DNA from: Hydrogenophilales bacterium 16-61-112
GTDB lineage: Bacteria > Pseudomonadota > Gammaproteobacteria > Burkholderiales > Thiobacillaceae
Assembly (NCBI GenBank): GCA_002257045.1
Contig: NCHD01000026.1
Span: 1 to 45,484, forward strand
DNA: 45,484 nt
Direction of reading: 5' to 3'
Notes under the pieces: generated by a model
What the model was told of the DNA's origin: nothing
The model's database searches: none
The model's input: only the letters and a program-made list of their open reading frames with translations
Shown here: piece after piece, positions 5,801 to 44,050 of the stretch
How the letters are laid out: each line of letters opens with the position of its first letter
How positions within the stretch are numbered: the stretch's first letter is position 1
Program-made: the position numbers and the translations under genes

Positions 5801-5810
5801 GACGTGCATC

Positions 5811-5845: not shown

Positions 5846-5949
5846 TGCCACCGATTTTTACCCGTTTTCGCTGTGCCTGGTCGTGGATGAGGCCATGAGC
5901 ATACATTCGGGATTTTTTCACTCCCCCCTTGTGCCGGACTTGTGCCGGA

Positions 5950-8353: not shown

Positions 8354-8383
8354 TTTCGAACAGCGTGTTTGTGGAGCATCCAG

Positions 8384-8935: not shown

Positions 8936-8953
8936 TTCAGGACACCACTCCGG

Positions 8954-9715: not shown

Positions 9716-9745
9716 GTTGTGCCGCAATTCTTCGTGGGCGTGCCA

Positions 9746-9772
9746 TCAAGTTTCAGGCAATCCTGTCGAAAC
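9746..9772 (+). promoter_or_regulatory. Candidate sigma-28 (FliA) promoter before motA
   Basis: TCAAGTTT (9746-9753), an 11-base spacer, then GTCGAAAC (9765-9772). The known FliA consensus in enterics is TAAAGTTT-N11-GCCGATAA, so this matches 7 of 8 and 5 of 8 positions with exact spacing. It lies 71 bases before the motA start, and fliA is encoded 7 kb downstream. Confidence 0.6.
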
Positions 9773-9842
9773 TTCATGGGTGGATCGGGGTTGCGCACGA
9801 GGGTGCCCAAGACCGTGAGTCAATCAATAAGGATGGACGCTT

Positions 9843-10703: not shown

Positions 10704-10743
10704 CTTTTTACCCATCTGAATTTCCTGTGATCGAAGTGCAGCA

Positions 10744-11682: not shown

Positions 11683-11777
11683 CCCGCTGCGCCGTCTGGC
11701 GCTAAATAGCAGGCTAAAACCCACTGTATTCCCCTGATTGCCCAGCCCGGGCATGGCCAATAATTCAACCTAAGAAA

Positions 11778-11807
11778 GCCCGTCTCGATCCAGGTGACGC
11801 GACGGGC
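11778..11807 (+). other. Hairpin in the flhB leader
   Basis: GCCCGTC (11778-11784) pairs with GACGGGC (11801-11807) across a 16-base loop, 22 bases before the flhB ATG. No U-tract follows. It may be a weak terminator after motB or a leader structure; nothing in the sequence decides. Confidence 0.35.
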
Positions 11808-11829
11808 ATCCTCAACAGGTGAATCAGGG

Positions 11830-12972
11830 ATGGCTGAAGAAAGCGATCAGGAAAAGACCGAAGCCCCGTCGCAACAGCGACTGGACAAAGCGCGCGAAGA
11901 CGGCCAGGTGCCGCAGTCGCGTGAACTGGCTACGTTCATCGTCCTGATGGCGGGCGGCTCGGGCATGTGGATGATGGCCAGCGGCATGGGCCAGACGCTG
12001 TCCGGGATTGTTCGCGGCGGCCTGCAGTTCGAGCCCGCCATCGCGCGTGACAGTTCGTATGCGATGGATCAGCTGTCGAGCCAGGTTTTCGAGGCGGTGC
12101 TGGCTTTGGCACCGTTTTTCGCGTTGATCGTGATCGCCACGCTGGTTGCACCATTCATGTTGCACGGCTGGCTGTTCAGTTCCAAGGCGCTGGCGCCAAA
12201 GTTCAGCCGCCTCAATCCCCTGTCCGGCATCAAGCGCATCCTGTCCTCGCAAGGCCTGGTCGAATTGCTCAAGTCGATCGGCAAGGTCGGCCTGCTGGGC
12301 GTGGTGGCGACCTGGCTGATCTGGGCCAACGTCGATGCCATTTTTTCGCTGAGCCTGGAAACGCCGACAACCGCCATCCGCCACATGGGCGATCTGATCG
12401 GCAAGGTCTTTCTGCTGGCTTCGGGCGCGATGATTTTCATCGTCGTGCTGGACTTGCCCTATCAGCTGTGGAGTCACCACAACAAGCTGAAAATGACCAA
12501 GGAGGAGCTGCGTCAGGAGGCCAAAGAGTCGGAAGGCGATCCGATGCTCAAGGCACGCATCCGTGCCCAGCAGCGTGAAATTTCGCGCCGCCGCATGATG
12601 AGCGAAGTGCCGATGGCCGATGTGGTGGTGACCAACCCGACCCATTACGCCGTGGCGCTCAAGTACACCGAAGGCAAGATGGGCGCGCCGCGCGTGGTGG
12701 CCAAAGGCGCCGACGCCGTCGCCGCCAAGATTCGCGAACTGGCCGCCGAGAACAATGTGCCGCTGCTGGAAGCGCCGCCGCTGGCGCGGGCGTTGTTCCG
12801 CCACACCGAAATCGGCGATGAAATCCCCGCCACCCTCTACACCGCGGTGGCGGAAGTGCTGGCCTACGTGTTCCAGCTGCGTCATTTCCAGAAAGCAGGC
12901 GGGGCTTACCCGAACGCGCCGACGACCTTGCCGGTTCCTCCCGAACTTGATCCGTTGCAGGCAGGCGCATGA
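11830..12972 (+). CDS. flhB: Flagellar export switch protein FlhB
   Basis: FlhB is the type III export-gate component that switches substrate class from rod/hook to filament. The 380-residue protein has the basic N-terminus (EKTEAPSQQRLDKAREDGQVPQSREL), four membrane helices, and the cytoplasmic autocleavage motif NPTH, with N269-P270 at the same position as in Salmonella. The ATG at 11830 is preferred over an upstream in-frame start at 11794. Its stop overlaps the flhA start (ATGA). Intact, in contrast to the next three genes. Confidence 0.96.
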   Translation: MAEESDQEKTEAPSQQRLDKAREDGQVPQSRELATFIVLMAGGSGMWMMASGMGQTLSGIVRGGLQFEPAIARDSSYAMDQLSSQVFEAVLALAPFFALIVIATLVAPFMLHGWLFSSKALAPKFSRLNPLSGIKRILSSQGLVELLKSIGKVGLLGVVATWLIWANVDAIFSLSLETPTTAIRHMGDLIGKVFLLASGAMIFIVVLDLPYQLWSHHNKLKMTKEELRQEAKESEGDPMLKARIRAQQREISRRRMMSEVPMADVVVTNPTHYAVALKYTEGKMGAPRVVAKGADAVAAKIRELAAENNVPLLEAPPLARALFRHTEIGDEIPATLYTAVAEVLAYVFQLRHFQKAGGAYPNAPTTLPVPPELDPLQAGA

Positions 12973-15012
12973 ACGGGCTGAATTTATCCAAGCTGTTTAA
13001 CGTCGCCCAGGTTCGTTCCATGGCGGCACCGATTTTCATCGTGCTCATTCTGGCGATGCTGGTGCTGCCGTTGCCCACGTTCATGCTGGACATGCTGTTC
13101 ACCTTCAACATCGCGCTGTCCATTATGGTGTTGCTGGTGAGCCTGTCGACCAAGAAGGCGCTCGATTTTGCCGCTTTCCCCACCGTATTGCTGCTGTCGA
13201 CCCTGCTGCGCCTGTCGCTCAACGTCGCGTCGACCCGCGTCGTGCTGCTCGAAGGCCATACCGGGCCGGACGCCGCCGGCAAGGTGATCGAAGCGTTCGG
13301 CCATTTCCTGGTCGGCGGCGACTACACGGTGGGCATCATCGTGTTCGTGATTCTGGTGGTGATCAACTTCATCGTGATTACCAAGGGCGCCGGGCGCATT
13401 GCCGAGGTCAGCGCGCGCTTCACCCTGGACGCCATGCCCGGCAAGCAAATGGCGATTGACGCCGACCTCAACGCCGGCCTGATCGACGAAGACGAAGCCC
13501 GCCGTCGCCGCGCCGAGGTATCGCAGGAAGCCGACTTTTTCGGTTCGATGGACGGTGCCTCGAAGTTTGTGCGCGGCGACGCCATCGCCGGCATCCTGAT
13601 TCTGGTGATCAACATCGTCGGCGGTCTCATCATCGGTTTGATGGAACACGACATGTCGCTGGCCGACGCGGCGCGCAACTACACCCTGCTGGCGATCGGC
13701 GATGGTCTGGTGGCGCAGATTCCGGCGCTGGTGATTTCCATTGCTGCGGGTCTGATCGTCAGCCGGGTCAGCACCGATGAAGACATTGCCGGTCAGGTGC
13801 TGTCGAACATCTTCAACAAAACCCAGGCGCTGTACATCACTGCCGCGATCATCGGCACCATGGGCTTGATTCCCGGCATGCCGCACTTTTCCTTCCTGCT
13901 GCTCGCCGGTGGCATGGTCTGGATGGCTTATAAAGGCAGCCACAAAACAGAGACGGCGCCGGAAGCGTTGCAGACCGCGCCCCTTGCAAGCGTCGAGTCG
14001 CAAGAAGCCAGTTGGGAAGACGTGGCGCCGATCGACACGCTCGGGCTGGAAGTTGGCTATCGCCTGATTCCGCTGGTGGACAGCGCAGCCGACGGCGAAC
14101 TGGTACGCCGCATCAAGGGCATTCGCAAGAAGTTCGCGCGCGAAATCGGCTTCCTGCCGCCTGCCGTCCACATTCGGGACAACCTGGAAATCAGCCCCAA
14201 CAGCTACCGCATCACGCTCAAGGGCGTGGAAATCGGCAGCGGCGAAGTGCGCACCGGGCTGTTTCTGGCGATCGATCCGGGCAACATCACGGCGACCCTG
14301 CCAGGCGTGGTCACCCGTGATCCCGCGTTCGGCCTGCCTGCGGTGTGGATCGAGGGTGAGTTGCGCGACCAGGCGCAGGCGCTGGGTTACACCGTGGTCG
14401 ACCCCGGTACCGTGATCGCCACCCACCTGAACCATCTGGTGACGCAGCATGCCGCCGAGCTGCTGGGACGCCAGGAAACGCAGGCGCTGCTCGATCACTT
14501 GGGCAAGAGCGCGCCCAAGCTGGTCGAAGACCTGGTGCCAAAAATGCTGTCGCTTTCCACCGTGCAAAAAGTGCTGCAAAACCTGCTGATCGAAGGCGTG
14601 GCCATCCGCGACATGCGCAGCATCATCGACACCCTGCTGGAAGAGGCCGCCCGCGTGCAGGATCCGGGCGAGCTCACCGCACTGGTGCGGGTGGCGCTCG
14701 GGCGCTCGATCGTGCAGCAGATTTACGGCTCGGTCGGCGAACTGCTTGCTGATGCAGACCCTGCAGGGCGGCAACGACGCGGCGGCGATGGAACCCGGCC
14801 TTGCCGATGCCTTGCTTGAGCGCACCCAGACCTCGACCCAGCGCCAGGAAGCCCTGGGCCACCCCCCCGTCTTGCTGACGCCGGTTGCCCTGCGTCCCTT
14901 GTTAGCCCGTTTTCTGCGGCGCACCGTGCCGCAACTCAAAGTGCTTTCGCACGCTGAAGTACCCGAAGGCAAACACATCAAAGTCACTTCCCTTGTAGGA
15001 GGAGCAGCATGA
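12969..15012 (+). pseudogene. flhA: flhA with out-of-frame deletion near the 3' end
   Basis: FlhA is the main export-gate protein. The first 590 or so codons are normal, with the FHIPEP-region signatures (LRLSLNVASTRVVLLEGH, DAMPGKQMAIDADLNAG). At about 14744 the frame changes: GSVGEL should run on to a segment of roughly ten residues and then LLMQTLQGG, but that piece is missing and the C-terminus (LLMQTLQGGNDAAAMEPG through KVTSLVGGAA) continues in the +1 frame from 14746 to 15012. As written, translation ends at 14819 after 616 residues with a scrambled tail. Either a real out-of-frame deletion of about 30 bases or an assembly error. Confidence 0.85.
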
Positions 15013-16168
15013 ACGTCAAACGTATCGTCGCCAAAACATCCCGTGAGGCCATGCGCCAGTTGCGCGAAGTCCTCGGCCGGCTCCAGCGCCGATGCCGCGG
15101 GAAAAGGCGGCGGACATGCAGTCCGAGCCGCATCCTGAAGTTAGCTTCAAGCGCCGGCTGGTCGAGCGGGTGGCCTTGCCCAGCGAGGACGGCGCCCAAC
15201 TGGCAAAAAGTGTCATCAGCGAAATCAAGACGATGCAGATGCGGCTGGAAAACCAGCTTGCCGATCTGGCCTGGCGTGATTTGCCGGGGCGCGACCCATC
15301 GGGCGCCACCTTGATGCGTGACATGCTGGCAGCGGGCTTCAGCGCCACCCTGGCGCGCGAGATGCTGGACAGCCTGCCGCGCGGCGAAGCACGCAGCGAC
15401 ACCGAACAGGCGCAAACCTGGATGCGCAACACGCTGATGAAGCGCCTGCAGGTGATGCAGAACGAAACCGACATGCTCGACGGCGGCGGCGTGTTCGCCC
15501 TGATGGGGCCGACCGGGGCAGGTAAAACCACCACCACAGCCAAGCTGGCCGCGCGTTTTGTCGTGCGCCACGGCGCCAGCAAACTGGCCTTGCTCACCAC
15601 CGACAGCTACCGGATCGGCGGCCACGAGCAGCTGCGCATTTACGGCAAGATCCTCGGCGTGACCGTGCATGCCGTGCGCGACGCGGCCGACTTGCGCATC
15701 GCGCTGAAAGAGCTGCGCAACAAGCACACCGTGCTGATCGACACCGTCGGCATGAGCCAGCGCGACCAGGCGGTGGCCGAGCAGGTTGAAATGCTGTGCC
15801 AGGCCGAGCATCCGATCAAGCGCCTGCTGCTGTTGAACGCTACCAGCCACGGCGACACGCTGGACGAAGTGGTGCGCGCTTACCAGTCGCGCGGCCTTGA
15901 TGGCTGCATCCTGTCGAAAGTCGACGAAGCCGCCAGCCTCGGCCCCGCGCTTGACTGCGCGATTCGCCACCAGCTCAACGTGCACTACCTGGCGACCGGC
16001 CAGCGGGTGCCCGAAGACCTGCATCTGGCCAATCGCCAATACCTGATTCATCGAGCTTTTAAGACGCGCACGCTCTCTTCGCCCTGGCAGCTCGACGACA
16101 GCGAACTGGCATTCGCCCTGTCGAGCCCGCAGGCTAGCCATCGTGAAAGCGCGGTGTCCCATGGCTGA
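15009..16168 (+). pseudogene. flhF: flhF with N-terminal out-of-frame deletion
   Basis: FlhF is the SRP-type GTPase that places polar flagella. The gene starts correctly (MNVKRIVAKTSREAMRQLREVLG at 15009), but the expected conserved continuation (PDAVILSNR-type) is absent. At about 15076 the frame jumps into a Pro/Ala linker (PAPAPMPREKAAD), and the rest, including the GTPase core with GPTGAGKTTTTAKLAARF, TTDSYRIGGHEQLRIYG and DTVGMSQRD, runs in another frame to 16168. The 3' part alone could be translated from an ATG at 15092 (358 residues). At least tens of codons are missing. The stop overlaps the flhG start. Confidence 0.85.
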
Positions 16169-33251: not shown

Positions 33252-33332
33252 GCTTACTTCTCCATCAGCTTCTTGATCACGCCCGCCGCCCATTCGCGCC
33301 AAAGCCGATCCGGAAGGTGGCTGTCAGCAGGG
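33252..33332 (-). pseudogene. Remnant of mechanosensitive-channel gene 3' end
   Basis: Bases 33252-33300 match 43071-43119 with 3 differences, and 33301-33332 match 43163-43194 with 3 differences. The 43 bases between those blocks are missing here. The matched region is the stop codon and last 40 or so codons of the intact channel gene at 43073. So a diverged, internally deleted copy of that gene's end lies here, in the same orientation, next to the end of the hybrid kinase. Confidence 0.8.
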
Positions 33333-33404
33333 TTGACGTGTAGCCGAAAGCCGAAAACTCATCCGTGCGCGCAGCCGGGCGGCCAACGGCGGCGCGCAGT
33401 CAAA

Positions 33405-34265
33405 TCAGACGTTGCGGCGGCGCGCCACGGCAGTAACCGCAGCCAGACCGGCCAGCATCAGTGCATAGGTTTCTGGCTCCGGCACCGGTGCGGCCGTCGC
33501 ATACAGATGACCGCTTGCGCCGACGACGCTGGCGTTGGCGGAAAGCACGTCCACATAGAGGTGGCCGGTATTGCTGACGTCCGCCACTGCCTTCATGTTT
33601 GCCGGATCCGGGCTGATGGCGTTTGCGGACACATGCAGCTTCATGAGCATGTCGAAGCTGTCGCCGACTCTCAGGCCAGTGATGTCGGTCGACACGATGT
33701 TTTGTGGATCATATTTGTTGATCATGGTGTGGGTGTCGACAATGACTCCCAGAGTGGGGTTCGACACCAAAAGCTGGGCAGTCGCCTCACTCAACGCGGT
33801 GAATGTGGCTCCGCCAAAGAACAGGCCGCCGACATCGATCGTGAAGCGCAGTGACACCGGTGTTCCGATGGGTACATTGGGTGCCCCGACCACGGTTCCG
33901 CTGTCTTTGAACCACGCATCCGACCTTGCGACGGCTTGGTTGTTGGGGGTGAGGTTGAGGGTCTCTGCGGAGGCAAACCCGCGCAGCAAGCCTGGGCTGG
34001 CACTTGCGCTGGCGTTTGCAAAGCCGGCAAAGACACCGCCATCCGCGACCGTGCGCGAGGCCGAGATGAAGCCTGCGCCGGCCTGATCCGGACTGATGAC
34101 ATACGGAGCACCAAAACCGGCGCCAACTGTCGCCTGGACACACTGGAAATAGGTAGGGTGCGGCTGCGCAACGTAGTTGTTGCAAAAATAGTCCTCTGCC
34201 TGCGCGCTTGCGCAAAGCAAAGCCAGCGGTAGCGCGCAGGCGACGATAGGCTTCTTGAGTTTCAT
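33405..34265 (-). CDS. PEP-CTERM sorting-domain protein
   Basis: A 286-residue exported protein. Signal peptide: MKLKKPIVACALPLALLCAS. Low-complexity, beta-rich middle with Ala/Ser/Gly stretches. At the C-terminus is a classic PEP-CTERM signal: VPEPETYALMLAGLAAVTAV followed by ARRRNV, recognised by the exosortase/EpsH pathway and usually linked to biofilm matrix. The ATG at 34265 has AAGGAG upstream. No exosortase is in the window. Surrounded by duplication debris. Function of the body domain is unknown. Confidence 0.88.
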   Translation of the reverse strand: MKLKKPIVACALPLALLCASAQAEDYFCNNYVAQPHPTYFQCVQATVGAGFGAPYVISPDQAGAGFISASRTVADGGVFAGFANASASASPGLLRGFASAETLNLTPNNQAVARSDAWFKDSGTVVGAPNVPIGTPVSLRFTIDVGGLFFGGATFTALSEATAQLLVSNPTLGVIVDTHTMINKYDPQNIVSTDITGLRVGDSFDMLMKLHVSANAISPDPANMKAVADVSNTGHLYVDVLSANASVVGASGHLYATAAPVPEPETYALMLAGLAAVTAVARRRNV

Positions 34266-34725
34266 GGATGGCTCCTTAAATAATAAATTCCACAGGGTGG
34301 GGTCAGGCGTCCGGGTATGTTCTCCGGTGGGTGTTGTCGCAATCTCCAGCTGTTCTTTCAAACCCTTACTCGCAAACCCACTACGCAGCCTTGATGCTGG
34401 CTGTTGCCGATTATCTATCTGTTGGGCGAACGCAAAACGACCGCGCCAACACAACTCAGCGCACACCGGAAAAACGCAAAAGAAGCGCAGCGCCTGACCG
34501 GCGTGCGCATGAGACATCGCCAGGCTTTTGCCCAGCGAAACAGAAATGGACGGGACAGGGAGCACCCCGTTCCTGGCGTCAAACTTCAACGCCGACTGCT
34601 ATTCACGCGCACTATTTGCTACTTTATTTTTGCAGTCAGTCTGCAATGCGACGTGTCTATGCACATCTGCACCCGCTGCTGTTTTTAACTACAGGGGATT
34701 TCAAGAGGGACAACCCCGCGCCCTC
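34266..34725. other. Non-coding stretch before duplicated block
   Basis: A 460-base interval with only short random open frames. It begins with the promoter side of the PEP-CTERM gene (minus strand). Near 34296 lies TGGGGTCAGGCGTC, similar to the GGGGYCAGG core of the short motifs at 35246 and 39540. No gene or RNA structure could be supported. Confidence 0.4.
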
Positions 34726-34996
34726 CCCAAACCAGCTGCCAGTTACAGCCTATCCTGCGGCAGCACTGCCTGCAAAAAATCACCGATTGATAACCGATTG
34801 GGAAAAAAGGCGAAAATAAACTGTCGTCTGGTGTGCCGGGGCGACAACCGGTGGTGTGGGAGAAAGATGAAGGAGGTGCGGTTGCGTGCGGCGGCACTGA
34901 GGCAATACCCACCACCTCAGCAGGTGCCAGACCGAGCCGGAATTCTGATTGGTCGATAGCGGATTCAGCGACAGGCGCGGCCGACTCAACCAGACG
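34726..34996 (+). repeat. Diverged direct repeat, copy 1
   Basis: This block aligns along its length to 39581-39857 in the same orientation at roughly 80% identity by eye (for example GAGCCGGAATTCTGATT and GATTGGGAAAA are shared). It corresponds to the sequence after the STAND/BTAD regulator gene plus that gene's last 14 or so codons, read on the minus strand as RLVESAAPVAESAID. In this copy the stop codon is changed to CAA. So a second, now lost, regulator gene once ended here. Confidence 0.8.
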
Positions 34997-35093
34997 TTTG
35001 GGTGGCTTAGCAGTCCGCGTAGATACTCTGTTCACTGTTTTTGCAAGGTGGAAATGCTACACAGCCAGATCCAACCCCGGATTTCCGACCGTA

Positions 35094-35244
35094 CTTGTGA
35101 GCATCGCCGCCCTGAAACTGCCGCATCGACCCGACCGAATCGAACCCCGCGCCAAGAAACGACGACCTGAAAACTTGCCGCTGCTGACCGTCCCGCGAGA
35201 GGTCGCCCGCGAAATTATCCGTGCTCAGCGGCTTAACCGAGTGC
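35094..35244 (+). pseudogene. IS4-type transposase C-terminal fragment
   Basis: About 50 codons read VLVSIAALKLPHRPDRIEPR followed by AKKRRPENLPLLTVPREVAR. This strongly resembles the C-terminal end of IS4-family transposases (HRP-DRIEPRA-KRRP-LL-PR pattern, from family knowledge). No upstream part of the transposase or terminal inverted repeat is recognisable, so it is a decayed remnant, ending at the short motif at 35246. Confidence 0.62.
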
Positions 35245-35245
35245 C

Positions 35246-35268
35246 ATGTGAGCCTGGCCCCTTTGATT
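35246..35268 (+). repeat. 23-bp motif, inverted relative to 39540-39562
   Basis: The 23 bases starting ATGTGAGCCTGGCCCC are identical to the reverse complement of 39540-39562. The two copies therefore form an inverted pair enclosing the 1320-codon gene. The AATCAAAGGGG-CAGG sequence resembles short palindromic motifs often seen beside REP-associated or IS remnants (general recollection). Confidence 0.7.
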
Positions 35269-35521
35269 GTCCAACGCGCCCCCGGTTGCGAAGGCGCTGG
35301 TTCAATGAGTTGCTGCGCGAGGCGTCCCGGTTGCGCTGTGTCAGCAGTCGCGGCTGGTCGAAACCTCGAATGGTCAAGCGACGACATTCACCCTACGCCA
35401 GCCATGTTCGCCCCAGACCCCGAAGCCAAATTGAGACTTGACCCCCGACTCCCCGGAAAACGGCTGATGCTGAGGTAGTGGCATGAGAGCCCCTTTTGTC
35501 CGCTTTAGTCACTTTGGTCCA
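35269..35521. other. Intergenic debris before the large gene
   Basis: No gene supported. Contains AAATTGAGACTTGACCCCC at 35429-35447, a further short motif of the same style as the 23-bp element. The 3' end of the large minus-strand gene is at 35522. Confidence 0.45.
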
Positions 35522-38500
35522 TTACGCTTCCCCTGGCGGCGGCATTCCGACCAGGCTGCCAGTCAGTCTTCCGACGAGGGTGTCACCGTCGAAGCGTGAA
35601 AATGCCAAGGTCAGGTCCCAAGTCCAGCCTGGCCTGAATACCTCGGATGGAATATCACCACTGATGAAGTTTATATCCGCACGAACGGGAACCGACTGCT
35701 CGGAAAATCCAAATACATCTGAATAGAAGTCAAAGCGGTCTTTGTCCGCCAGGGCGGCGTTCCTTGGTGGAACGACGGATCCCACGGCATTCGCTGCAAC
35801 TATCCCTGCAGGTTTCTTAATAAGATATTCAACTTTGTCGGCGGAGCCCCTAACTAGCCCAAGCAGTTTTGGAGCGGTTTTTAGGCTAAGTTTGAACAGG
35901 TTGCCGAACGTCGGCTCGCAGTTGATAATGGCCTCGAAGGCGGCACCGCCGCCGGCGGCAGAGTCAAATTTGGGATTCAGGCCCAGACTGACGGCTAAGC
36001 CCAGCAGCGCGCTATCGGCAACCGTCCGATACGGCAGGTCAATACCCGGGACCACAAAGCCCGCCCGCGCCTCAACTGTCCGAACTGTCACCGGCACAAA
36101 CGGCTCGACTAGAGCACTGCGAAGGTCGACCGGCGACTGCAATCGAATAATCCGATCGAATGGCGACTCGCCATAGTCGAACGTCCAGCCCTGACCGGGT
36201 TTGCTGGGATCAGCTCTTGGGGTGTCGGTAGGTAGCGGGTCGGTTGCAAGGCGGCATTGGAAGGACCCCGAAAATGCAATTCTGACGCCGGAGACAGGAA
36301 GGGATTGCAATTCACTGGAGGAAAGCGGTGCGGCATTCTGGCCGCTTTGCCCGCCCGTGCCGCTGACAGCATTGGTATAGACTTGCCGCGCGTCGTCCGG
36401 GGTGATGAGGCCCTGCGCCTGGGCGCTACCAAGGACCTTGCCAAGATCTTGCAGATCACGGTTGACGGCGGACGGCTGCGTTGGCGCCGCGCGCGTACCG
36501 CCGATGGCAGCCCCACCCGTGGGAGCGGCAGTTCCGGCGGACACTCCGCCTTTGCCCCCAGCGATCTTTACCGCGTTGTCGCTGAGCGTTTTCAACAGGT
36601 CGGTGGTCAGCGCCGTTCCCGACATGTCGCGGAACAAGTTCGGCGTGCCAAGGACATTAAATGCAGCCCCCAGGCCCGTCGGATCGGGTGCCGCTGGCGG
36701 ATTGACAATGTTGACGATCGAACTGGGGAATGGTGTGGCTGACAAGTTCTGCTGCTGCGGTTGCGGCGTAACCGGCACTGTCGGCGCGACTTCCGGCGCG
36801 AAGTGCGGAATCGGTGATTGTTGCCAATCCCAGAACCGGGTGTTGTCTATTTCCTCGGATGCGTTGCAGTGGCCAAGCTTGGCCTCGGCAAACACGCCGC
36901 GGGTCGGAAGCGCGACGAGCCGTTCATCGGGCTGAATGGCATCGGGCTCGCCACCGAGTGCATTGGCGATCTTTGCAGTGATTGCGCGGTTCCAGTCCCG
37001 ATCGGTACTCGGGTACGCGATAAAATCCCCCACAATCTCCAGTGGCCGGTTTTCGATATGATCAAGCACCGTCGAGCCGTCGCTCATCGCGATTGCGTCG
37101 AGCACGTCGGCCCGTTCGAGTGCACCAAGGCCGAGCGCGATGGCCCTGCTGTAGTGGCGTTTGTTGGACTTGAGGTGCGCGATCAGATCGAGCGCCTGCG
37201 CGCGGTCTGCAACTTCGCCGGCTGAGACAATCGGCACAGGACCTACAGCGGGACCCGGCCTCTTGGTCGGCAGAGTGAGAAGATTGTCCACCTCGCTGTT
37301 CTGATTCCTGATCACGATATGCCCGTCATCGTGATTTTCATCGACGAGGACAACGCCGGGCGGGCCGGCGAGATCGAATCCCGTGATCTTGATATGCGAG
37401 AACGAAACGTGGGCATCACTCTCGTCCGTCGGAAACACTGCCACGTGCACGCCGATACCCCTGATTTTCTCCCAAGATATCTCGCCGTTTCCGATAGGCA
37501 TGGCCGTAAACACATTGTTCTGATCGTTCAGTCGAAATGCACCGCTGTGGTTGAGGACCTCGTTGCCGAAGCTATTGACCAACTTCAGAGCGCTGCCGTC
37601 GGTGAGGAGCAGGTGGGCAAGGACATCTGCATGCTGGTCATCGTCATCGACGTTCCTGGTGAAGCCACCCGAGCGCATTTCGAAGGTGAAGAAGTGAAAA
37701 CGGGGAGCAGGATTGAGATCGACCACGACCGGTGGTTGCGTAGGAAACGGCTTCGATAAGTCGCGAAACCGACCTTCCGCGACTCGACCAACCGCATCAA
37801 AGCTGGGGGCGAGTTGGTCATTCAGCAATGCGCCCGCCAATACCGCGCGGTTATCAACGATGCTGCGCAGGGCGCCATTGACGATATCGAAAGAATCGAA
37901 CCAGTCAGTCTTGAATTTCACGAATACGGCAGGACGCTGACGGACCAACCCAGTCACGACCCTGAAATGCCTCAGCACTTCGTAGTAAAGAATCGTCAGT
38001 GCGTGGCTGTGGTTGTAGTTGACGACCGTTCGTGTCTCAATCGCCTCCTTTTCCGACTGGGTGGAATGGACTACAACCGTGCTTTGCAATTCCCGCATCG
38101 ACGAGCTTGCCTGGGTGATGTTGTCGCTCAGCTTCTGAATAGTAGTCCCGCTGATATCGCGGCTGCCGCTGCTGCTCGACGTGCTGCCGCCGAGCGAGCC
38201 GGCGATGCCTGCACCCGTACCGTCAGAGCTGCTGCCGAGTGCACCGGCAACCCCGGCCGAAAAGTTGCTGCCGTGCTGATACTCCCGTGCGGCGGCCGCG
38301 ACGGCCTCACTGATCGTCCGGTCGCGATGCTCGTTGTGAACCAGTTGCTCGTCGACAGTCGTCCGCTCCGTTCGCTGTGCCTCATCCCGCCGCGTCCAGT
38401 CAATCACTGCCAGGTTTACCGATTCGCCGGGGGCAAGTGGCATGCTGTAGATGATTTGTCCCAGTGAGTGCCCAAGCGGGTTCCACGCAACGCGATACTC

Positions 38501-39484
38501 GTTGACGACTCCAAGCTGAACCTGCTGCGCGACAACCGGCGCTACCGGAACGGAAACATCCCGAAGGCGCACGACCTGATAGAAGTACTGTTCTTGCAAA
38601 CTGAGGTTGGCAGGCAATATCGACTCGCAACCGTCGGCTCCAATGAGGGAGCCCGGATTGGTTGCGAAGGATCCGGGAGAGAGCCGCCAATCCTCGATCG
38701 ATGGACTTTGCATCGCCGGAAGTGCGAGGTTCTGTATGGCGTCCGGTAGATGAAGCCTTGCAATCTCAAACCGACTAACTATCGCGTCCTGTGTGACGCG
38801 GCCCTGTGCGAGGGCGTCGAAAAACGCGCCGCCGGGACCTGTCGGATATACCGCTACAGTCACATCGAGTATTGCGGCGGGATCAAGGCTTCTTGCTTTT
38901 ATTGCCGCGCCTAGCGCTTTTCGCACCGACAGCGGCAATCGCGCTAGATCGTATGAAAGGTAGCCAACATGATCGGTCGCCAGCACACCCAGGGAATAAG
39001 CCCAAAGTATGGGTGCACCGACGAACGGTGGCTTGAGCGGCAACTCCAGCTTGGCCGCCTCCTCGCGAATAGCGTCCCTGAGGGCAATCACAAGGGCGTC
39101 ACCGTCAATCTCTCGCAGCGCCGCACCATTCGCCGCGCCGCGGACTCGCTTGATGACCGTAGCAATGAACTTAGGCAGGGCTCCGCGCGAGCCGGCCAGC
39201 TTATCCAGGCCCTTGGCACCAAGTTGCCGCACCAGCTCGCGATTGATGGCGTCCAGGAGTCGACGAAGAGGCTCCGGGTCGCCTAGATTTTCTGGTGCGT
39301 CCGCTCGCAAGGCGGCCTGGATTGGATCATCGAGGCCTTGAAAAGGGTCGACTGGCGGCTCAGATTCTTCGGAGCGGACGATGACCTCGGCATACGCGGG
39401 CATGCGCGCAACGGGTAAGCCTGAACCCTGCTCCAGCGCAAAGATCGCCAGGCGGGACGGAGTGGCAAACGTAGTGGGCAGCAT
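35522..39484 (-). CDS. Large uncharacterised protein (1320 residues)
   Basis: No family recognised with confidence. It has no signal peptide or membrane helix. Visible parts, by approximate residue: an alpha-rich N-terminal region (1-280); a conserved-looking core with NPLGHSLGQIIYSMPLAPGE and WTRRDEAQRTERTTVDEQLV (350-400); a Gly/Ser-rich stretch (405-445); an amphipathic region with RELQSTVVVHSTQSEKEAIE; a His/Tyr-rich motif NYNHSHALTILYYEVLRHFR (491-510); beta-rich segments; a Pro/Gln linker (PVTPQPQQQNLSATP, about 905); and a C-terminal region ending PGWTWDLTLAFSRFDG. The start at 39484 (MLPTTFATPSR) has GGGAG 7 bases upstream; a GTG start at 39562 lies inside a repeated motif and is rejected. 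It stands alone between duplicated flanks. Confidence 0.8.
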   Translation of the reverse strand: MLPTTFATPSRLAIFALEQGSGLPVARMPAYAEVIVRSEESEPPVDPFQGLDDPIQAALRADAPENLGDPEPLRRLLDAINRELVRQLGAKGLDKLAGSRGALPKFIATVIKRVRGAANGAALREIDGDALVIALRDAIREEAAKLELPLKPPFVGAPILWAYSLGVLATDHVGYLSYDLARLPLSVRKALGAAIKARSLDPAAILDVTVAVYPTGPGGAFFDALAQGRVTQDAIVSRFEIARLHLPDAIQNLALPAMQSPSIEDWRLSPGSFATNPGSLIGADGCESILPANLSLQEQYFYQVVRLRDVSVPVAPVVAQQVQLGVVNEYRVAWNPLGHSLGQIIYSMPLAPGESVNLAVIDWTRRDEAQRTERTTVDEQLVHNEHRDRTISEAVAAAAREYQHGSNFSAGVAGALGSSSDGTGAGIAGSLGGSTSSSSGSRDISGTTIQKLSDNITQASSSMRELQSTVVVHSTQSEKEAIETRTVVNYNHSHALTILYYEVLRHFRVVTGLVRQRPAVFVKFKTDWFDSFDIVNGALRSIVDNRAVLAGALLNDQLAPSFDAVGRVAEGRFRDLSKPFPTQPPVVVDLNPAPRFHFFTFEMRSGGFTRNVDDDDQHADVLAHLLLTDGSALKLVNSFGNEVLNHSGAFRLNDQNNVFTAMPIGNGEISWEKIRGIGVHVAVFPTDESDAHVSFSHIKITGFDLAGPPGVVLVDENHDDGHIVIRNQNSEVDNLLTLPTKRPGPAVGPVPIVSAGEVADRAQALDLIAHLKSNKRHYSRAIALGLGALERADVLDAIAMSDGSTVLDHIENRPLEIVGDFIAYPSTDRDWNRAITAKIANALGGEPDAIQPDERLVALPTRGVFAEAKLGHCNASEEIDNTRFWDWQQSPIPHFAPEVAPTVPVTPQPQQQNLSATPFPSSIVNIVNPPAAPDPTGLGAAFNVLGTPNLFRDMSGTALTTDLLKTLSDNAVKIAGGKGGVSAGTAAPTGGAAIGGTRAAPTQPSAVNRDLQDLGKVLGSAQAQGLITPDDARQVYTNAVSGTGGQSGQNAAPLSSSELQSLPVSGVRIAFSGSFQCRLATDPLPTDTPRADPSKPGQGWTFDYGESPFDRIIRLQSPVDLRSALVEPFVPVTVRTVEARAGFVVPGIDLPYRTVADSALLGLAVSLGLNPKFDSAAGGGAAFEAIINCEPTFGNLFKLSLKTAPKLLGLVRGSADKVEYLIKKPAGIVAANAVGSVVPPRNAALADKDRFDFYSDVFGFSEQSVPVRADINFISGDIPSEVFRPGWTWDLTLAFSRFDGDTLVGRLTGSLVGMPPPGEA

Positions 39485-39539
39485 CTTCAACTCCCTAACA
39501 ACAGAAACTTTGAGCGGCGAAATGGGGTCGGCGAAATTG

Positions 39540-39562
39540 AGAATCAAAGGGGCCAGGCTCAC
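39540..39562 (-). repeat. 23-bp motif, inverted partner of 35246-35268
   Basis: Exact reverse-complement copy of 35246-35268, just upstream of the large gene's start. Together the pair bracket that gene as short inverted repeats. Confidence 0.7.
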
Positions 39563-39580
39563 ATTGTTCCCATCTGTCTG

Positions 39581-39857
39581 CCAAAACCGGCTGCCAGTCG
39601 CTGTCCACTCTGCGGCAGCCGTGCCTGCAATAAATCACCGATAGTTAACCGATTGGGAAAAATGGCGAAAGCAATCTGCCGTCGGATGCGCGGTGTGACG
39701 GGGCGACAACCGGCGGTGGGGGAAAGATGAAGGGGGGTGCGGTCGCGCGCGGCGACACCGGGGCAATACCCGCCACCTCAGCAGGTGCCAGGCCGAGCCG
39801 GAATTCTGATTAGTCGATAGCGGATTTAGCGTCAGGCGCGGCCTGTTCAACCAGGCG
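39581..39857 (+). repeat. Diverged direct repeat, copy 2
   Basis: Partner of 34726-34996. This copy includes the real 3' end and stop codon of the STAND/BTAD regulator gene (stop at 39810-39812) and about 230 bases downstream of it. Confidence 0.8.
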
Positions 39858-42800
39858 CTTGCGCAGCGCTTCGGTTTCTGCGCTGGGCGACACGCCGAGC
39901 AGCATCGACAACATGCTGCGGCATCGTTGGTAGACCTGGATGGCGTCGGCGGGCTCGCCGCGCGCCTGATGGCAGCGCATCAGCCGACGGTACAGGTCTT
40001 CGCTGGTGGGGTCGTGTTCGATTCCGCACTGGTACCAATGCGCGGCGGCCTCCCAGTCGCGCTCGCCCTCCAGCCGGTCGCCCTGCTGCCGCAGCCCGCG
40101 CAGATATTTGCCGTGCAGGCGGGCGCGCGGCGCCAGCATCCACGGTTGCTCGGGTTCGCGTGCGAGCAGCGGGCCGCGATACAGCAGTAGCGCTTTTTGC
40201 AGCGCTTGCGGGCACTGGCCAGGCTCGCCCAGCCCGGCCATGCCGCGCTCGAAAGCCCAGGCATCGACCCAGCAGACGCTGGGGTCGAGGCTGAATTTGC
40301 CGCGCGAGAAGGTCACGGCGTCGGGGTGGCCCAGCAGTTTGCGCAGGCGCAGCAGGGTCATGCTGAGTGTTGCCAGGGTCTCGCCATTGCCGTCGCTGGC
40401 AAGCGCTTCGGCGAGCGGCAGTTCGTCGATGTCGCGTCCGCCCAGCGCGATCAGCACCTGCAAGAGTGCAAGCGGTTTTTTCTGCGCCTTGCGGGCGAAA
40501 TTCACGGGTTCGCCGTCCACCACCAGTGAAAAACGCCCCAGGGTGTAGACCTTTACCGGCCACGGCCAGTTCTCGACCTCGGGCGCGGGGGCGCGCAGCG
40601 TGCGGGCGCGGATGATGTGGTGGACGTACTCGACCTCGACGTCGATTTCCAGGGCGCGGGCGCACAGGCGCGCCATCATCCCGCAGCGCCAATAGACAAA
40701 GCTGGTGTAACGATCCCGGCAACCGAGGCGCAGGCCTTCGTGAAGGGCCGCATCACCAGCGACATCGTCGTGTGCGGCGTAAGCAAAGTCGGCCTCGACC
40801 ATGCGGCAGATGTGTTCGAGCATGCGGCTGCCCAGCGTTTGCGCCATAGCGAGCGCGGATGTCAGGGTGTCGCGAGCCAGAGTGGGTTCTCCGTGGTCGT
40901 GCAGCGCCAGGGCGAGGCCGATGCGAGTCACACCGGCAAACACACTCCAGCCCGCATCGGCCAGTTTTACGGCGATTTGCGCATGGCTCAGTGCGCGTTC
41001 GGGATCATAACGGGCGGATGCACACAAAGCTGAGCAGATATGGAAGAAGCCCCCCGCGTTGCCCGCGCGGCTGGACGGGTCTGCGGCAAATTGTGCCAGC
41101 AGCTTGTTGGCCTGTCCTGTACGCCCCAGCGCAAGCGCGGACGAAATTCCTGGTGCCAGCAGCTGGTGATCCCACAGATGAATGCCTGTGCGCTGCGATT
41201 CGGCCAAACCCTCGTCGACTATTTGCAGGCAGTTTTCGAAATTTCCGGTATTGAACTGGTATTGGGCTTTACCGAAATACCAGAATCCGAGAATCGACTC
41301 ATGGGCGGAGACCTGGGAGTAGCCCGGATATTCGGTCATTCTGAGTGCGGCTTGAGTATGGTCGCCTCGGATCATATGGAGATGCAGTGCCGTTTGCAGG
41401 CTGGGTAAAAACTGGGCGATATTGTCGCTCTGGCGTGCCAGCGACAATGCGCGCTCTTCCCAGTGGTCAAGCATTGGATGGGCTGGCTCGCGCAAGAAAA
41501 GAATGCTCATCGCGGTATGAGCCACCAGCCAATCGATTTCGGAATGGGAAAACGCCGCGTGCTGAGTGCGCAGATGGTCCAGATGCGCCATCCACGGGTC
41601 AAGCCGTTGCATATTGCCGGACACGTCCCAGATGATCGCGGTGCCGATGCTGGCCCAGCTTGCGAAGAGTCCTGCAGGATCTTGCTGTTCGTTGAACAAG
41701 GCGAACGCGCGTTCCAGGTCGGCAAGACTCGCAGACGGGTCGGTCGACATGCGCACCCGGCCACGCCAGTAAAGCAACCAGGGCGTCTGCGGGATCGCGG
41801 CTTCCGGTACGTAGGCTATCCAGTCTCTCAGGCTGGCAAGGCGCCCCTGAGTCATCAAGGCCTGGGCCTGGCTAACGATTAACCCGGTGAGCGCTGGCCA
41901 ATCGGCGATCTCGGCGAACAGGGAGGCTGCCGCTTCGGGCTGCGCGTTTTCGGCCAGCAGGGCGGCAGTTCGACGTTTGATCTCTGTCAGTTCCGTTGCG
42001 TTCAAGGTCGCCATGGCCTGGGCGACCAAAAACTCGCGGAATAGCGCGTGATACTGATAACTGATCTGGGTATCACTGATCTGGGTATCGCTGCGACGTT
42101 CCGTGAACCAGTGCTGCTGATGCAGGCCGTCGAGCAGATCGGCCGCGCAGGGATTGCCAGAAAGCGTTTCTGCCATGGCTGCTGTGATCTTGGGAAGAAA
42201 CGCAGTGCCTATCAGAAACGAGCGCATTTCGGTGCCCACCTTGGCAAACACCTCGCCCGCAAAATAGGCGAACAGGCCTGCCGCCGACCCGGATGGGTGG
42301 ACGAGTGCAAGCGTGCCGGTGCGACGCACGTGTTCAGCCAACAGCACCACCCCGGCGGCCCAGCCATTGGCCTGCTCGTGCAGTGTGTCAAGCTTAGCGG
42401 GGTCAAGAGGCTGTCGTGCATTGGCCAGCGCGGCAGTCTCGTCACGGTCGAGACGCAGAGCCACGGACGCAATGTCGCCGATGATTCCATTGGCAAGCTG
42501 GCGAGCATAGTGTGGCGGTGGCTCCGAACGACTGATGACGATCAGCTTGATCGCCGCAGGCAACTGTTCGACCGCTTCGACGACCACGTCGTGAAAAGCC
42601 GACTCCAGTGGTACCTCCTGATAGTTGTCCAGCACTACTACTGCTGACGCACCGAGACGCTGGAAGGCCTCACGGAAGTAACGCCGTGCAAAACCCCGCA
42701 GATCGGCCAGGTGCTCCGGCTGGAACAGGGGGAGGGACAGTGGCTCGCCGATGGCGGCATGCCTCATCGCCAGCGTCAGAAAATGGAAAAAAGTTGCAGG

Positions 42801-43031
42801 GTCGGTGTCGCCCTGATCGACCTGATACCAGATACCCGGTAATTCGCGTGCTTCAAGGTAACTCGCGATCAACGTGGTTTTGCCGGCGCCAGGGGGCGCG
42901 CTCACCCAGATTGTGGAGCGGGCGCGCTGCGCATCGAGCAGATCGAACAGACGCTCGCGTTGGAGCGCCTGGTGTAGGCGTGGGCGTGTGAGTTTGGCGA
43001 TGGAGGGTGCAAACGTCATTCCGTTTCCCAT
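39810..43031 (-). CDS. STAND-ATPase transcriptional regulator with BTAD domain
   Basis: A 1073-residue regulator. N-terminal MalT-like NTPase: P-loop SAPPGAGKTTLIASYL (residues 44-59) and Walker-B-type AVVVLDNYQEVP. Middle: helical, TPR-like repeats. C-terminal: an OmpR-type winged helix from about residue 825 (VKVYTLGRFSLVVDGEPVNF) followed by a bacterial transcriptional activator domain (YRRLMRCHQARGEPADAIQVYQRC) as in AfsR/SARP proteins. So the DNA-binding domain is SARP-like, not the LuxR type of MalT. The ATG at 43031 is the longest sensible start; 43019 is possible, and the open frame further upstream is the reverse shadow of the channel gene. A 15-bp perfect tandem repeat (42060-42089) duplicates DTQIS. 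Confidence 0.85.
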   Translation of the reverse strand: MGNGMTFAPSIAKLTRPRLHQALQRERLFDLLDAQRARSTIWVSAPPGAGKTTLIASYLEARELPGIWYQVDQGDTDPATFFHFLTLAMRHAAIGEPLSLPLFQPEHLADLRGFARRYFREAFQRLGASAVVVLDNYQEVPLESAFHDVVVEAVEQLPAAIKLIVISRSEPPPHYARQLANGIIGDIASVALRLDRDETAALANARQPLDPAKLDTLHEQANGWAAGVVLLAEHVRRTGTLALVHPSGSAAGLFAYFAGEVFAKVGTEMRSFLIGTAFLPKITAAMAETLSGNPCAADLLDGLHQQHWFTERRSDTQISDTQISYQYHALFREFLVAQAMATLNATELTEIKRRTAALLAENAQPEAAASLFAEIADWPALTGLIVSQAQALMTQGRLASLRDWIAYVPEAAIPQTPWLLYWRGRVRMSTDPSASLADLERAFALFNEQQDPAGLFASWASIGTAIIWDVSGNMQRLDPWMAHLDHLRTQHAAFSHSEIDWLVAHTAMSILFLREPAHPMLDHWEERALSLARQSDNIAQFLPSLQTALHLHMIRGDHTQAALRMTEYPGYSQVSAHESILGFWYFGKAQYQFNTGNFENCLQIVDEGLAESQRTGIHLWDHQLLAPGISSALALGRTGQANKLLAQFAADPSSRAGNAGGFFHICSALCASARYDPERALSHAQIAVKLADAGWSVFAGVTRIGLALALHDHGEPTLARDTLTSALAMAQTLGSRMLEHICRMVEADFAYAAHDDVAGDAALHEGLRLGCRDRYTSFVYWRCGMMARLCARALEIDVEVEYVHHIIRARTLRAPAPEVENWPWPVKVYTLGRFSLVVDGEPVNFARKAQKKPLALLQVLIALGGRDIDELPLAEALASDGNGETLATLSMTLLRLRKLLGHPDAVTFSRGKFSLDPSVCWVDAWAFERGMAGLGEPGQCPQALQKALLLYRGPLLAREPEQPWMLAPRARLHGKYLRGLRQQGDRLEGERDWEAAAHWYQCGIEHDPTSEDLYRRLMRCHQARGEPADAIQVYQRCRSMLSMLLGVSPSAETEALRKRLVEQAAPDAKSAID
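42060..42089. repeat. 15-bp perfect tandem repeat inside the regulator
   Basis: ACTGATCTGGGTATC occurs twice head to tail, giving the in-frame duplication DTQISDTQIS. Being a multiple of three, gain or loss of a unit would keep the frame. Confidence 0.85.
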
Positions 43032-43072
43032 GACTATGAGTCGCCAATTCTCCGCTTGCTGGCTTGATCGGC

Positions 43073-43738
43073 TTATTTCTCCGTCAGCTTCTTGATCACG
43101 CCTGCCGCCCATTCGCGCCCGCCCAGGCCAAACGCCAGCGCGAACGCCAGGCCGATTGCGCCAAAGCCGATCTGGAAGGCGGCGGTCAGCAGGGTGGTGC
43201 CGATCGCCAGTTGCTCCAGCGCGACGAACACCACAAAGATGATGACGCCATATTCCGACAGCGTGCTGAGGGTGAGCGCGCCTTGCACGCCGATGTTGTT
43301 GAGATAGGCAAACACCAGGCGGTTGATGAAACGCGCGACCAGCGTACCGAACACCAGCACCAGGATGGCGACGATGATGTTGGGGATATACAGCACGATC
43401 TTGTTGAACAGTTCGGCCACCATATGCAGGCCGAGGCTGTTGGAGACGGTGACCATGACCACGAAAATAATGACCCAGTAGGTCAGCTTGCCCAGCAGGC
43501 GCGACAGCGACACATCGAGATGGCCCTGCTTGAGGAACGCCTCGATGCCGGTTTTTTCGGCCAGGCTGTCGAACTTCAACACATCGAGCAGCTTCATCAC
43601 GCCGGTCTTTGCCAGGTTGGCGAGCAGCCAGCCTACGAACAGCAGCACCAGCGCAGCGAGCAGTTGGGGTACAAATCCAGCCAGTTGGGTCCAGAAAGCG
43701 GTAAACGAAGCGACAAAAACATCCAGTTGTTGCTGCAT
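43073..43738 (-). CDS. Mechanosensitive-channel-like membrane protein
   Basis: A 221-residue protein with four to five hydrophobic helices (LLAALVLLFVGWLLANLAK, LTYWVIIFVVMVTVSNSLG, IVLYIPNIIVAILVLVFGTL, GVIIFVVFVALEQLAIG, FGAIGLAFALAFGLGGREW). It fits small-conductance mechanosensitive channel relatives of the conserved TM-helix repeat type and ends soon after the pore-like GLAFALAFGLGG, so it lacks the usual MscS beta domain. GGAGGAATG precedes the ATG at 43738. It lies 41 bases before the regulator on the same strand, probably one unit. A damaged copy of its 3' end is at 33252. Confidence 0.82.
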   Translation of the reverse strand: MQQQLDVFVASFTAFWTQLAGFVPQLLAALVLLFVGWLLANLAKTGVMKLLDVLKFDSLAEKTGIEAFLKQGHLDVSLSRLLGKLTYWVIIFVVMVTVSNSLGLHMVAELFNKIVLYIPNIIVAILVLVFGTLVARFINRLVFAYLNNIGVQGALTLSTLSEYGVIIFVVFVALEQLAIGTTLLTAAFQIGFGAIGLAFALAFGLGGREWAAGVIKKLTEK

Positions 43739-44050
43739 GACACATTCCTCCATCACTGCTAAAAATGCATTATATCCACGCAATCGGGTTGGCCTTTCCG
43801 GGCAGCCAGGTGGTGCGGGCGCAAGCGATGGAGGGGTCCTGCCCGTCGGGTTCTGCCTAAACTGTCTAAAACGCCAGGCGGTGCCAGTCGATGCCCCATA
43901 CCTAACACGCCGGATTCCTGCCGCTCGCACATTTCTGTCCTGCTGGCCACGCTGATGGGGCAGGGCTATTCCGGCCTGGGGCCGGTTGTTGAGAACGGCG
44001 CCATCGTCAAGCGTGAACTCGCTTCTCGCGACGCTGTGCCGCACGGCCTG
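43739..44050. other. Region between channel gene and hydrogenase relic
   Basis: About 300 bases. It includes the promoter side of the channel gene (minus strand). The right half may be the unrecognisable 5' part of the broken hydrogenase gene. No intact gene or RNA seen. Confidence 0.4.

What the first reader, a model, noticed from the sequence alone, without database searches (positions are those of the whole stretch)
35522..39484. Unrecognised 1320-residue protein in a mobile-debris island
The largest gene in the window has no family I can name, yet has conserved-looking motifs (PLGHSLGQIIYSMPLAPGE, NYNHSHALTILYYEVLRHF) around a Gly/Ser-rich hinge. It stands alone, minus strand, between an IS4 transposase tail, diverged direct repeats and an inverted 23-bp pair. 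This is the best candidate for undescribed accessory biology here.
Basis: partly seen in the sequence, partly recalled or inferred. Interest (0 to 1): 0.72.

Follow-up and report, generated by a model that had tools for sequence, protein, structure and literature searches.

The report
Toxin-like carrier with swappable tail
This large bacterial protein belongs to a scattered, so far unnamed family whose conserved body is predicted, with modest confidence, to resemble pore-forming toxins and whose tail end is exchanged for different domains, which suggests a new kind of weapon or delivery protein.

Summary
The gene is real and intact: 1320 aa, minus strand, 35522-39484, with no match over a cut-off in Pfam, NCBIfam, PHROGs or PADLOC. 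It is not an orphan: relatives lie at 49 loci of one scan of GTDB-based contigs and in 29 plasmid records, in eight bacterial phyla and haloarchaea, patchily, in a tree that mixes phyla. The architecture is a conserved carrier (to about residue 985) plus an exchangeable C-terminal payload. Of the 45 most similar carrier pairs listed, 19 have no tail match; four comparisons have carriers 64-70% identical. Payloads named by profile include GH25, C70 peptidase plus amidase, DUF922, DUF2272 and tyrosinase; most have no name. [quoted passage not shown] Foldseek's best hits are aerolysin, but confidence and TM-scores are low. One related clade has an encapsulin gene 33-68 bp upstream in four genomes; the window has none. 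The window's own payload (1065-1320) has no convincing relative. Best reading: a polymorphic-toxin-like protein on a predicted pore-forming module. Family and tail exchange are shown; pore formation, export and target are inferred.

The parts
35522..39484 (-). whole gene, 1320 aa, ATG start
   Evidence: similar over about residues 10-1000 to L028, L029, L031, L032
38585..39484 (-). residues 1-300: N-terminal region; residues 160-300 matched in most of the relatives, 1-160 in part of them, neither in most of the distant relatives
38435..38521 (-). predicted long strand 1, residues 322-350 (motif around G338-P352)
   Evidence: AlphaFold models
38339..38422 (-). predicted long strand 2, residues 355-382 (355-376 in the second model)
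38105..38338 (-). residues 383-460: Gly/Ser/Ala-rich insertion segment, charge-poor at 404-442 (6.6% charged), hairpin predicted with low confidence
38021..38104 (-). predicted long strand 3, residues 461-488 (467-488 in the second model)
37916..38005 (-). predicted long strand 4, residues 494-523, overlapping the N489-H506 motif
36929..37915 (-). residues 524-852: large insert between strands 4 and 5 (helices, strands at about 598-740, helices); one relative, L026, has a tectonin match between the two conserved blocks
36863..36928 (-). predicted strand 5, residues 853-874 (motif LPTRGVFAEAKLGHC)
36305..36817 (-). residues 890-1060: Pro-rich stretch, helices and linker; the part from about 1000 is shared with relatives that carry other payloads
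35525..36292 (-). residues 1065-1320: the window's own C-terminal payload, without convincing relatives
34723..35000 (+). left copy of a direct repeat of about 280 nt flanking the gene
39578..39861 (+). right copy of the direct repeat; overlaps the last 52 bases of the regulator gene
35246..35271 (+). left arm of the inverted repeat
39539..39564 (-). right arm of the inverted repeat
39810..43052 (-). upstream MalT-like regulator with a C-terminal BTAD domain; start chosen here (context, not part of the family)
   Evidence: BTAD 1.5e-21; MalT model 8e-48, below its cut-off

Best explanation
It is a member of a so far unnamed, horizontally spread family of modular proteins that work like polymorphic toxins: a conserved carrier with an exchangeable C-terminal payload. 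The carrier is predicted to be a single-chain beta-pore-forming module of aerolysin-like topology. Proposed course: the protein leaves the producer without a Sec signal (by lysis or an unknown route), binds a target surface through its N-terminal region and the domains inserted between strands 4 and 5, oligomerises, and drives the Gly/Ser-rich segment (383-460) through the membrane as a hairpin; the C-terminal payload then acts at or across that membrane. Shown by computation: family, distribution, conserved carrier, payload exchange. Predicted at modest to low confidence: strand order with insertion segment. Inferred only: pore formation, release, target, delivery. The activity of the window's payload is unknown.
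For: Family: 29 plasmid records, 49 contig loci. Carrier conserved, tail not: of the 45 most similar carrier pairs listed, 19 have no tail match at E < 0.1, 17 keep the same tail, 9 share a weak or partial match. The closest unrelated ones: L037 v L033 and L074 (70% over about 970 columns), L030 v L059 (66.5% over 499), L048 v L057 (65% over 718), L036 v L061 (64% over 899). Payloads: DUF2272, and OmpA just below its cut-off; GH25, Peptidase_C70 plus Amidase_6, DUF922, beta-lactamase-like below cut-off; tyrosinase; endolysin-like (weak); nuclease-like (motif by eye). Fold: strands 322-350, 355-382, 461-488, 494-523, 853-874 with the Gly/Ser segment between the second and third (first four repeated on 300-585), the order given for the aerolysin domain in PMC3110756 (passages). 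Foldseek: all 5 PDB matches with E <= 0.001 are aerolysin entries, and 43 of the 50 listed are beta-pore or binary toxins; for the second model 48 of 50 listed, none with E <= 0.001. No hydrophobic segment in the first 60 residues of any of 50 family ORFs, crude scan.
Against: Model confidence is modest (pLDDT 73.6, pTM 0.47; second model 61.4, 0.36): about 54-71 in strands 2 and 3, 48-81 in strand 5, 35-44 in the insertion segment. TM-scores to pore entries are very low (at most 0.25 by target length), so the Foldseek list may reflect any long hairpin; no control with another long-hairpin protein was run. Alternation of polar and non-polar residues, the best preserved pattern of aerolysin hairpins (PMC3110756), is weak here: mean maximum alternation 0.58 v 0.50 +- 0.02 in shuffles, no significant beta periodicity, and 443-462 leans helical (p 0.03). 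No profile match to a pore-toxin family in 44 members and none to any PDB sequence at E <= 1. No recurrent payload-linked neighbour, no export system identified. Only 5 of 46 tails got a named Pfam domain at E <= 0.05, two low-complexity hits aside, and some payloads (tyrosinase, beta-lactamase-like) are not obvious toxins.
Confidence: 0.5

Rival explanations
1. A modular extracellular or surface scaffold: the long strands form a stalk or sheet, the swapped tails are wall-binding or enzymatic domains displayed on it, and nothing is inserted into a membrane.
For: Several payloads act on or bind cell walls (GH25, amidase, OmpA-like; DUF2272 by general knowledge); a tectonin match in L026 and a PA-IL lectin match in one member; weak amphipathic pattern.
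Against: No N-terminal hydrophobic segment found (crude); a charge-poor Gly/Ala/Ser segment lies where pore toxins have their hairpin.
Confidence: 0.25
2. A cargo of, or partner to, an encapsulin-like shell: the family is at root a nanocompartment system and the window gene is a member that lost the shell.
For: Encapsulin (Linocin_M18 5e-16, 3.9e-15, 2.2e-16, 2.1e-19) 33, 67, 44 and 68 bp upstream in an Anaerolineae MAG, Nitrosomonas Nm166, Methyloglobulus and N. nitrosa; these four form one supported clade, in a supported set of seven with the window.
Against: No Linocin_M18 match in the window's assembly (assembly 94% complete). The shell HMM, run on the loci then held (L001-L077, many only about 3.7 kb) and the window, found only the three loci it was built from. 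13 of 48 genomes searched have a Linocin_M18 gene, 7 of them Nocardia, and in none of the Nocardia loci fetched did the shell HMM find one beside the family gene.
Confidence: 0.1
3. An effector carried by a contractile injection system (eCIS) or a phage-derived particle.
For: Pvc16_N, an eCIS marker by general knowledge, is in 17 of 47 carrier genomes; one unverified faecal phage contig encodes a relative.
Against: 30 of 47 carrier genomes lack it, and no matched background rate was measured; in the genus 0 of 8 carriers have it while 2 non-carriers do. Five viral-contig scans with strict peptide patterns confirmed no relative.
Confidence: 0.08
4. A decayed or chance long ORF in mobile debris.
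For: Flanked by diverged repeats and gene remnants.
Against: 1320 codons open; it carries the residues invariant in 44 members and is 53% identical to a Chloroflexota carrier over 943 columns.
Confidence: 0.02

Closest known systems
Aerolysin-fold beta-pore-forming proteins (as defined in PMC3110756, passages seen)
   Same: Predicted order of five strands, insertion segment between strands 2 and 3, variable loop between 4 and 5; Foldseek's best PDB matches.
   Different: No sequence match, far larger (1320 aa), weak amphipathic alternation, exchanged C-terminal domains, low-confidence model.
Polymorphic toxins (PMC3482391, passages seen; for example Rhs, MuF, TANFOR carriers, the last two from search listings)
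   Same: Conserved N-terminal carrier, unrelated C-terminal domains behind closely related carriers, overlapping payload kinds such as peptidases and OmpA.
   Different: No known trafficking domain and no adjacent immunity gene found; the carrier itself looks like a pore module. 'Aerolysin' does not occur in the held part of that survey.
Tc toxins (TcA / TcB-TcC)
   Same: Large translocator with exchangeable toxic end (search listings and general knowledge).
   Different: Single chain; no VRP1, SpvB or TcdB match in the window protein.
Family 1 encapsulin operons (PMC8346489, Family 1 section read)
   Same: Shell gene directly upstream in one clade; that section leaves 90 Family 1 systems unassigned.
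   Different: The section lists peroxidase, ferritin-like and cytochrome-linked systems; 'toxin' and 'pore-forming' do not occur in the main text. No shell in the window.

Membership tests
aerolysin-like beta-PFT | five long strands, insertion loop between 2 and 3, variable loop between 4 and 5 | tested here: inconclusive
   Order seen in the AlphaFold model of 1-985, strands 1-4 again in the model of 300-585, at modest to low confidence; strand pairing could not be inspected
aerolysin-like beta-PFT | alternating polar and non-polar residues in the insertion loop | tested here: inconclusive
   Alternation slightly above shuffles, Fourier test not significant
aerolysin-like beta-PFT | sequence-profile match to a pore-toxin family | tested here: not met
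   44 members against Pfam; profile against PDB sequences
aerolysin-like beta-PFT | structural superposition on a member | tested here: inconclusive
   Best E 3.6e-4 (aerolysin), but TM at most 0.25 by target length among listed pore entries
aerolysin-like beta-PFT | oligomeric membrane pore | not testable with these tools
   needs biochemistry
polymorphic toxin | conserved carrier with exchanged C-terminal domains | tested here: met
   carriers 64-70% identical with unrelated tails in four separate comparisons; 19 of the 45 closest pairs without tail match
polymorphic toxin | recognisable toxin domain at the C-terminus | tested here: inconclusive
   Enzyme domains in several relatives, none in the window's own payload
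polymorphic toxin | trafficking domain or secretion signal | tested here: not met
   No such Pfam match; no hydrophobic segment in the first 60 residues of 50 ORFs (crude, starts are first start codons and some ORFs are truncated)
polymorphic toxin | adjacent immunity gene | tested here: inconclusive
   No recurrent payload-linked neighbour by clustering; ORFs were chosen by length, not by a gene caller
encapsulin system | shell gene in the operon | tested here: not met
   Absent from the window and from G000; present in four relatives
eCIS effector | eCIS cluster in the same genome | tested here: not met
   Marker Pvc16_N not found in G000; assembly 94% complete

The most novel reading that the evidence does not exclude
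The family is a single-polypeptide translocating toxin: an aerolysin-topology beta-barrel that carries its own interchangeable enzyme at the C-terminus, spread across bacterial phyla and haloarchaea, with one lineage that stores or packages it in an encapsulin shell, so that encapsulins serve toxin storage or delivery as well as metabolism.
Probability: 0.15. Interest if true: 0.9.

Novelty: new variant of a known kind. Interest (0 to 1): 0.7.

Why it matters
A carrier that moves between phyla and changes its C-terminal domain in the manner of polymorphic toxins, yet matches nothing over a cut-off in the four protein-family libraries searched, would add a class to known bacterial conflict systems. 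If the carrier is a beta-barrel pore module, one chain would unite pore and cargo, functions that binary and Tc toxins split among subunits. The encapsulin-linked clade would make it directly testable whether encapsulin shells can hold something other than redox or storage enzymes.

Tried and rejected
Known family by profile: Pfam, NCBIfam, PHROGs, PADLOC, PDB sequences. PHROGs on 43 core members gave scattered weak hits: one unknown family in 23 members (best E 0.043), 'minor head protein' in 7 (best 6e-4), single members up to 2.4e-5 (one a 'tail associated lysin', 9.6e-5); not pursued, so a distant phage link is not excluded. Viral contigs: five scans, none confirmed. eCIS as a requirement: not supported. 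Relatives of the payload: genus (56 genomes) and plasmids gave nothing beyond the window itself; the class (369 genomes) gave one weak hit (E 0.0013, stops inside); the PDB one at E 0.93. Similarity of the window tail to that of L028 (21% over 115 aa, E 5e-4 without composition correction) is not relied on. Encapsulins on Ruegeria plasmids lie in a different operon with no family gene annotated beside them, no support. A beta-versus-helix decision for 383-460 from periodicity failed. 'GH19-like' or endolysin-like tails: motif by eye plus weak PDB profile hits (best 0.0024 to a protein not named as a lysin, endolysin 0.009). Nuclease-like tails: motif by eye; beta-sandwich tails: by eye. Genus: the contig length of G011, 2,909,809, recalls Thiobacillus denitrificans; recall, not a result. 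One request (L005) was in the wrong frame and was redone.
Full report
What is there. The reading frame 35522-39484 on the minus strand encodes 1320 residues without a stop. It follows, by 325 bp, a MalT-like regulator with a BTAD domain (ending at 39810), also on the minus strand. A direct repeat of about 280 nt lies on both sides of the gene (34723-35000 and 39578-39861, 83%); the right copy overlaps the last 52 bases of the regulator gene. Inside it lies an inverted pair of 26 nt (35246-35271, 39539-39564, 96%). In the assembly the left direct copy and the core of the inverted pair match only at these places. Further out, the 3' end of a gene that looks MscS-like by eye recurs as a remnant (33252-33333 against 43071-43195). 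These repeats suggest arrival by insertion or recombination. I recognised no integrase among the neighbouring ORFs (mostly by eye), so the mechanism is open. GC is 57-63% over the gene and 57-67% around it, no clear sign of foreign origin.

Family. No library names it, nor does a PDB sequence (one match, E 0.2). Yet tblastn finds 29 plasmid records, among them Streptomyces, Haladaptatus (archaea), Nostoc, Polaromonas and Psychrobacter, one unverified faecal phage contig, and 49 loci in one scan of GTDB-based contigs, labelled Actinomycetota, Pseudomonadota, Chloroflexota, Bacillota, Bacteroidota, Cyanobacteriota, Planctomycetota and Acidobacteriota. That scan used two short peptide patterns, so 49 is a lower bound. 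Presence is patchy: 8 of 56 genomes of the window's genus at E <= 0.001, three of them weak matches in frames of 435-562 codons, and 9 of 369 genomes drawn from the class; the own genome is counted in both. The window's best carrier match is a Chloroflexota MAG (54%), while members in its own genus match only in pieces at 33-40% (28% for a short form). In the tree of 44 carriers the labels Actinomycetota and Pseudomonadota need 8 and 10 changes (starred branches force 7 and 8), and a supported clade joins Planctomycetota, Actinomycetota and Pseudomonadota with short branches. Against free mixing, Actinomycetota rows cluster more than shuffled labels (2 of 500 shuffles as low; Pseudomonadota 70 of 500), and paralogy can inflate such counts. 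With the patchiness, transfer is the simpler reading.

Modules. Blocks matching residues 320-570 and 757-985 are found in nearly all long members, and 160-300 in most of the loci; L006, 971 residues in the stretch held, matched only 324-509. Forms of about 430 residues (L011, L015) match only within 326-524. Beyond about residue 985 the proteins diverge. Of the 45 most similar carrier pairs (tails over 150 aa), 19 have no tail match at E < 0.1, 17 keep the same tail, and 9 share weak or partial similarity, in part a linker. Closest unrelated cases: L037 with L033 or L074 (70% over about 970 columns), L030 with L059 (66.5% over 499), L048 with L057 (65%), L036 with L061 (64%). Named tails: DUF2272 in L023, OmpA just below its cut-off in L024; GH25 in L072, Peptidase_C70 plus Amidase_6 in L054, DUF922 in L031, beta-lactamase-like below cut-off in L037; tyrosinase in L005; Big_3_5 in one. 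Endolysin-like (L059, L061, Nocardia) rests on weak PDB profile hits, nuclease-like (L028, L032, L042) on motifs by eye. Most tails have no name: of 46, five got a Pfam domain at E <= 0.05, apart from a low-complexity family in two. A linker around residues 1000-1060 is shared by members with different tails.

Fold. An AlphaFold model of residues 1-985 with 44 members (mean pLDDT 73.6, pTM 0.47) shows long strands at 322-350, 355-382, 461-488 and 494-523, a shorter one at 853-874, and a low-confidence segment 383-460 between the second and third. A second model of 300-585 (43 members, pLDDT 61.4, pTM 0.36) repeats the four strands and draws the segment as a hairpin of two strands, again with low confidence. 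This order, including a variable insert between strands 4 and 5, is how PMC3110756 defines the aerolysin domain (passages). Foldseek against the PDB has aerolysin at all five places with E <= 0.001; 43 of the 50 listed matches are beta-pore or binary toxins, the rest five lipases, a Tc toxin and a phage tail protein. For the second model 48 of 50 listed are such toxins and two are phage proteins, none with E <= 0.001. Against viral models nothing reached 0.001. TM-scores are very low, so this is a lead and not a demonstration. The lipase matches (probability 0.99-1.00 over 133-156 columns) may reflect a PLAT-like beta-sandwich near 595-740; the aligned range was not printed, so this is inference.

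Tests against the pore reading. The segment 404-442 is Gly/Ser/Ala-rich and 6.6% charged. Alternation of large hydrophobic residues slightly exceeds shuffles (0.58 against 0.50, s.d. 0.02), and related rows inflate this. A Fourier test on column means finds no beta periodicity at p < 0.05 in the stretches tested (best 0.056 for strand 1) and a weak helical one at 443-462 (p 0.03). No pore-toxin profile matches any of 44 members. I hold 'works like a polymorphic toxin' more firmly than 'is an aerolysin-fold protein', and pore formation as a hypothesis.

Neighbours. Clustering of 630 neighbouring ORFs from the loci (chosen by length, not by a gene caller) gave eight groups present at three or more loci: an encapsulin and a small downstream gene, three sets shared only by close Nocardia or nearly so, and response regulators, ABC-type ATPases and a serine-hydrolase-like group at mostly larger distances. 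In the Anaerolineae MAG L028, Nitrosomonas sp. Nm166 (L030) and Methyloglobulus (L031) the encapsulin (Linocin_M18 over its cut-off) ends 33, 67 and 44 bp before the family gene. In N. nitrosa the family gene lies in two pieces on two contigs (L090, L059); the 5' piece has an encapsulin 68 bp upstream, and its frame stops 143 bp before the contig end, so it may be interrupted. All four genomes have a 118-123 aa protein downstream, helical by eye. They form one supported clade (100/99) within a supported set of seven that holds the window, and the three complete ones carry about 150 extra N-terminal residues. Their tails differ, so the shared neighbours go with the carrier and not with the payload. 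The shell profile found no other locus among L001-L077 and the window, many of these stretches being short. Linocin_M18 is in 13 of 48 genomes searched, 7 of them Nocardia, and not in G000.

Export. None of 50 family ORFs has a hydrophobic segment in its first 60 residues (a simple scan, starts taken as the first start codon, some ORFs truncated). Pvc16_N is in 17 of 47 carrier genomes, without a matched background; in the genus it is in 2 of 56 genomes, neither of them a carrier. How the protein leaves the cell is unknown.

Literature. Searches of the held library for aerolysin with polymorphic toxins, the aerolysin fold, encapsulins with toxins or pore formers, encapsulins with Nitrosomonas or Methyloglobulus and DUF2272/DUF922 with toxin domains showed no listed paper whose title or abstract start describes this family; only the top 6-15 of each result were listed. 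In PMC8346489 the Family 1 section was read and the main text searched: no 'toxin'. In PMC3482391 passages were seen: no 'aerolysin' and no 'encapsulin' in the held part. In PMC10669011 passages were seen: a capsid-like protein in an insecticidal parasporal body, a distant precedent. This does not prove absence from print.

Verdict. The family, its spread and tail exchange are well supported. The mechanism is a reasoned guess at about 0.5. The window protein is one member, and its own tail remains unexplained.

Noticed in passing
L091 (G496:C32:8000-24000), 2-6056 and 8104-15999: In Nitrosomonas nitrosa a second encapsulin-like gene (Linocin_M18 1.5e-16) lies 31 bp upstream of a 1703-aa PG_binding_1 plus VRP1 protein, about 2 kb from an SpvB/TcdB-type gene: a shell gene beside a Tc-like toxin locus.
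   Followed up: partly
33252-33333 and 43071-43195: The 3' end of a gene that looks MscS-like by eye is duplicated as a remnant about 9.8 kb away, outside the repeat pair that flanks the family gene; the order of remnants differs from a simple tandem duplication.
   Followed up: partly
39810-43745: The 1311-aa ORF is probably a regulator of about 1080 aa; its first 230 or so codons lie over the MscS-like frame of the same strand.
   Followed up: partly
34833-35441: A mosaic ORF; separate parts of it match separate places in two relatives and in another contig of the same assembly, as expected of mobile-element debris.
   Followed up: partly
33405-34589: A PEP-CTERM protein (3.3e-7) lies between the MscS-like remnant and the direct repeat.
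   Followed up: no
L011, L015 and three genus genomes: Short forms (L011 and L015 about 430 residues) match only the core of the family, without N-terminal domains or payload: possibly ancestral or partner proteins.
   Followed up: partly
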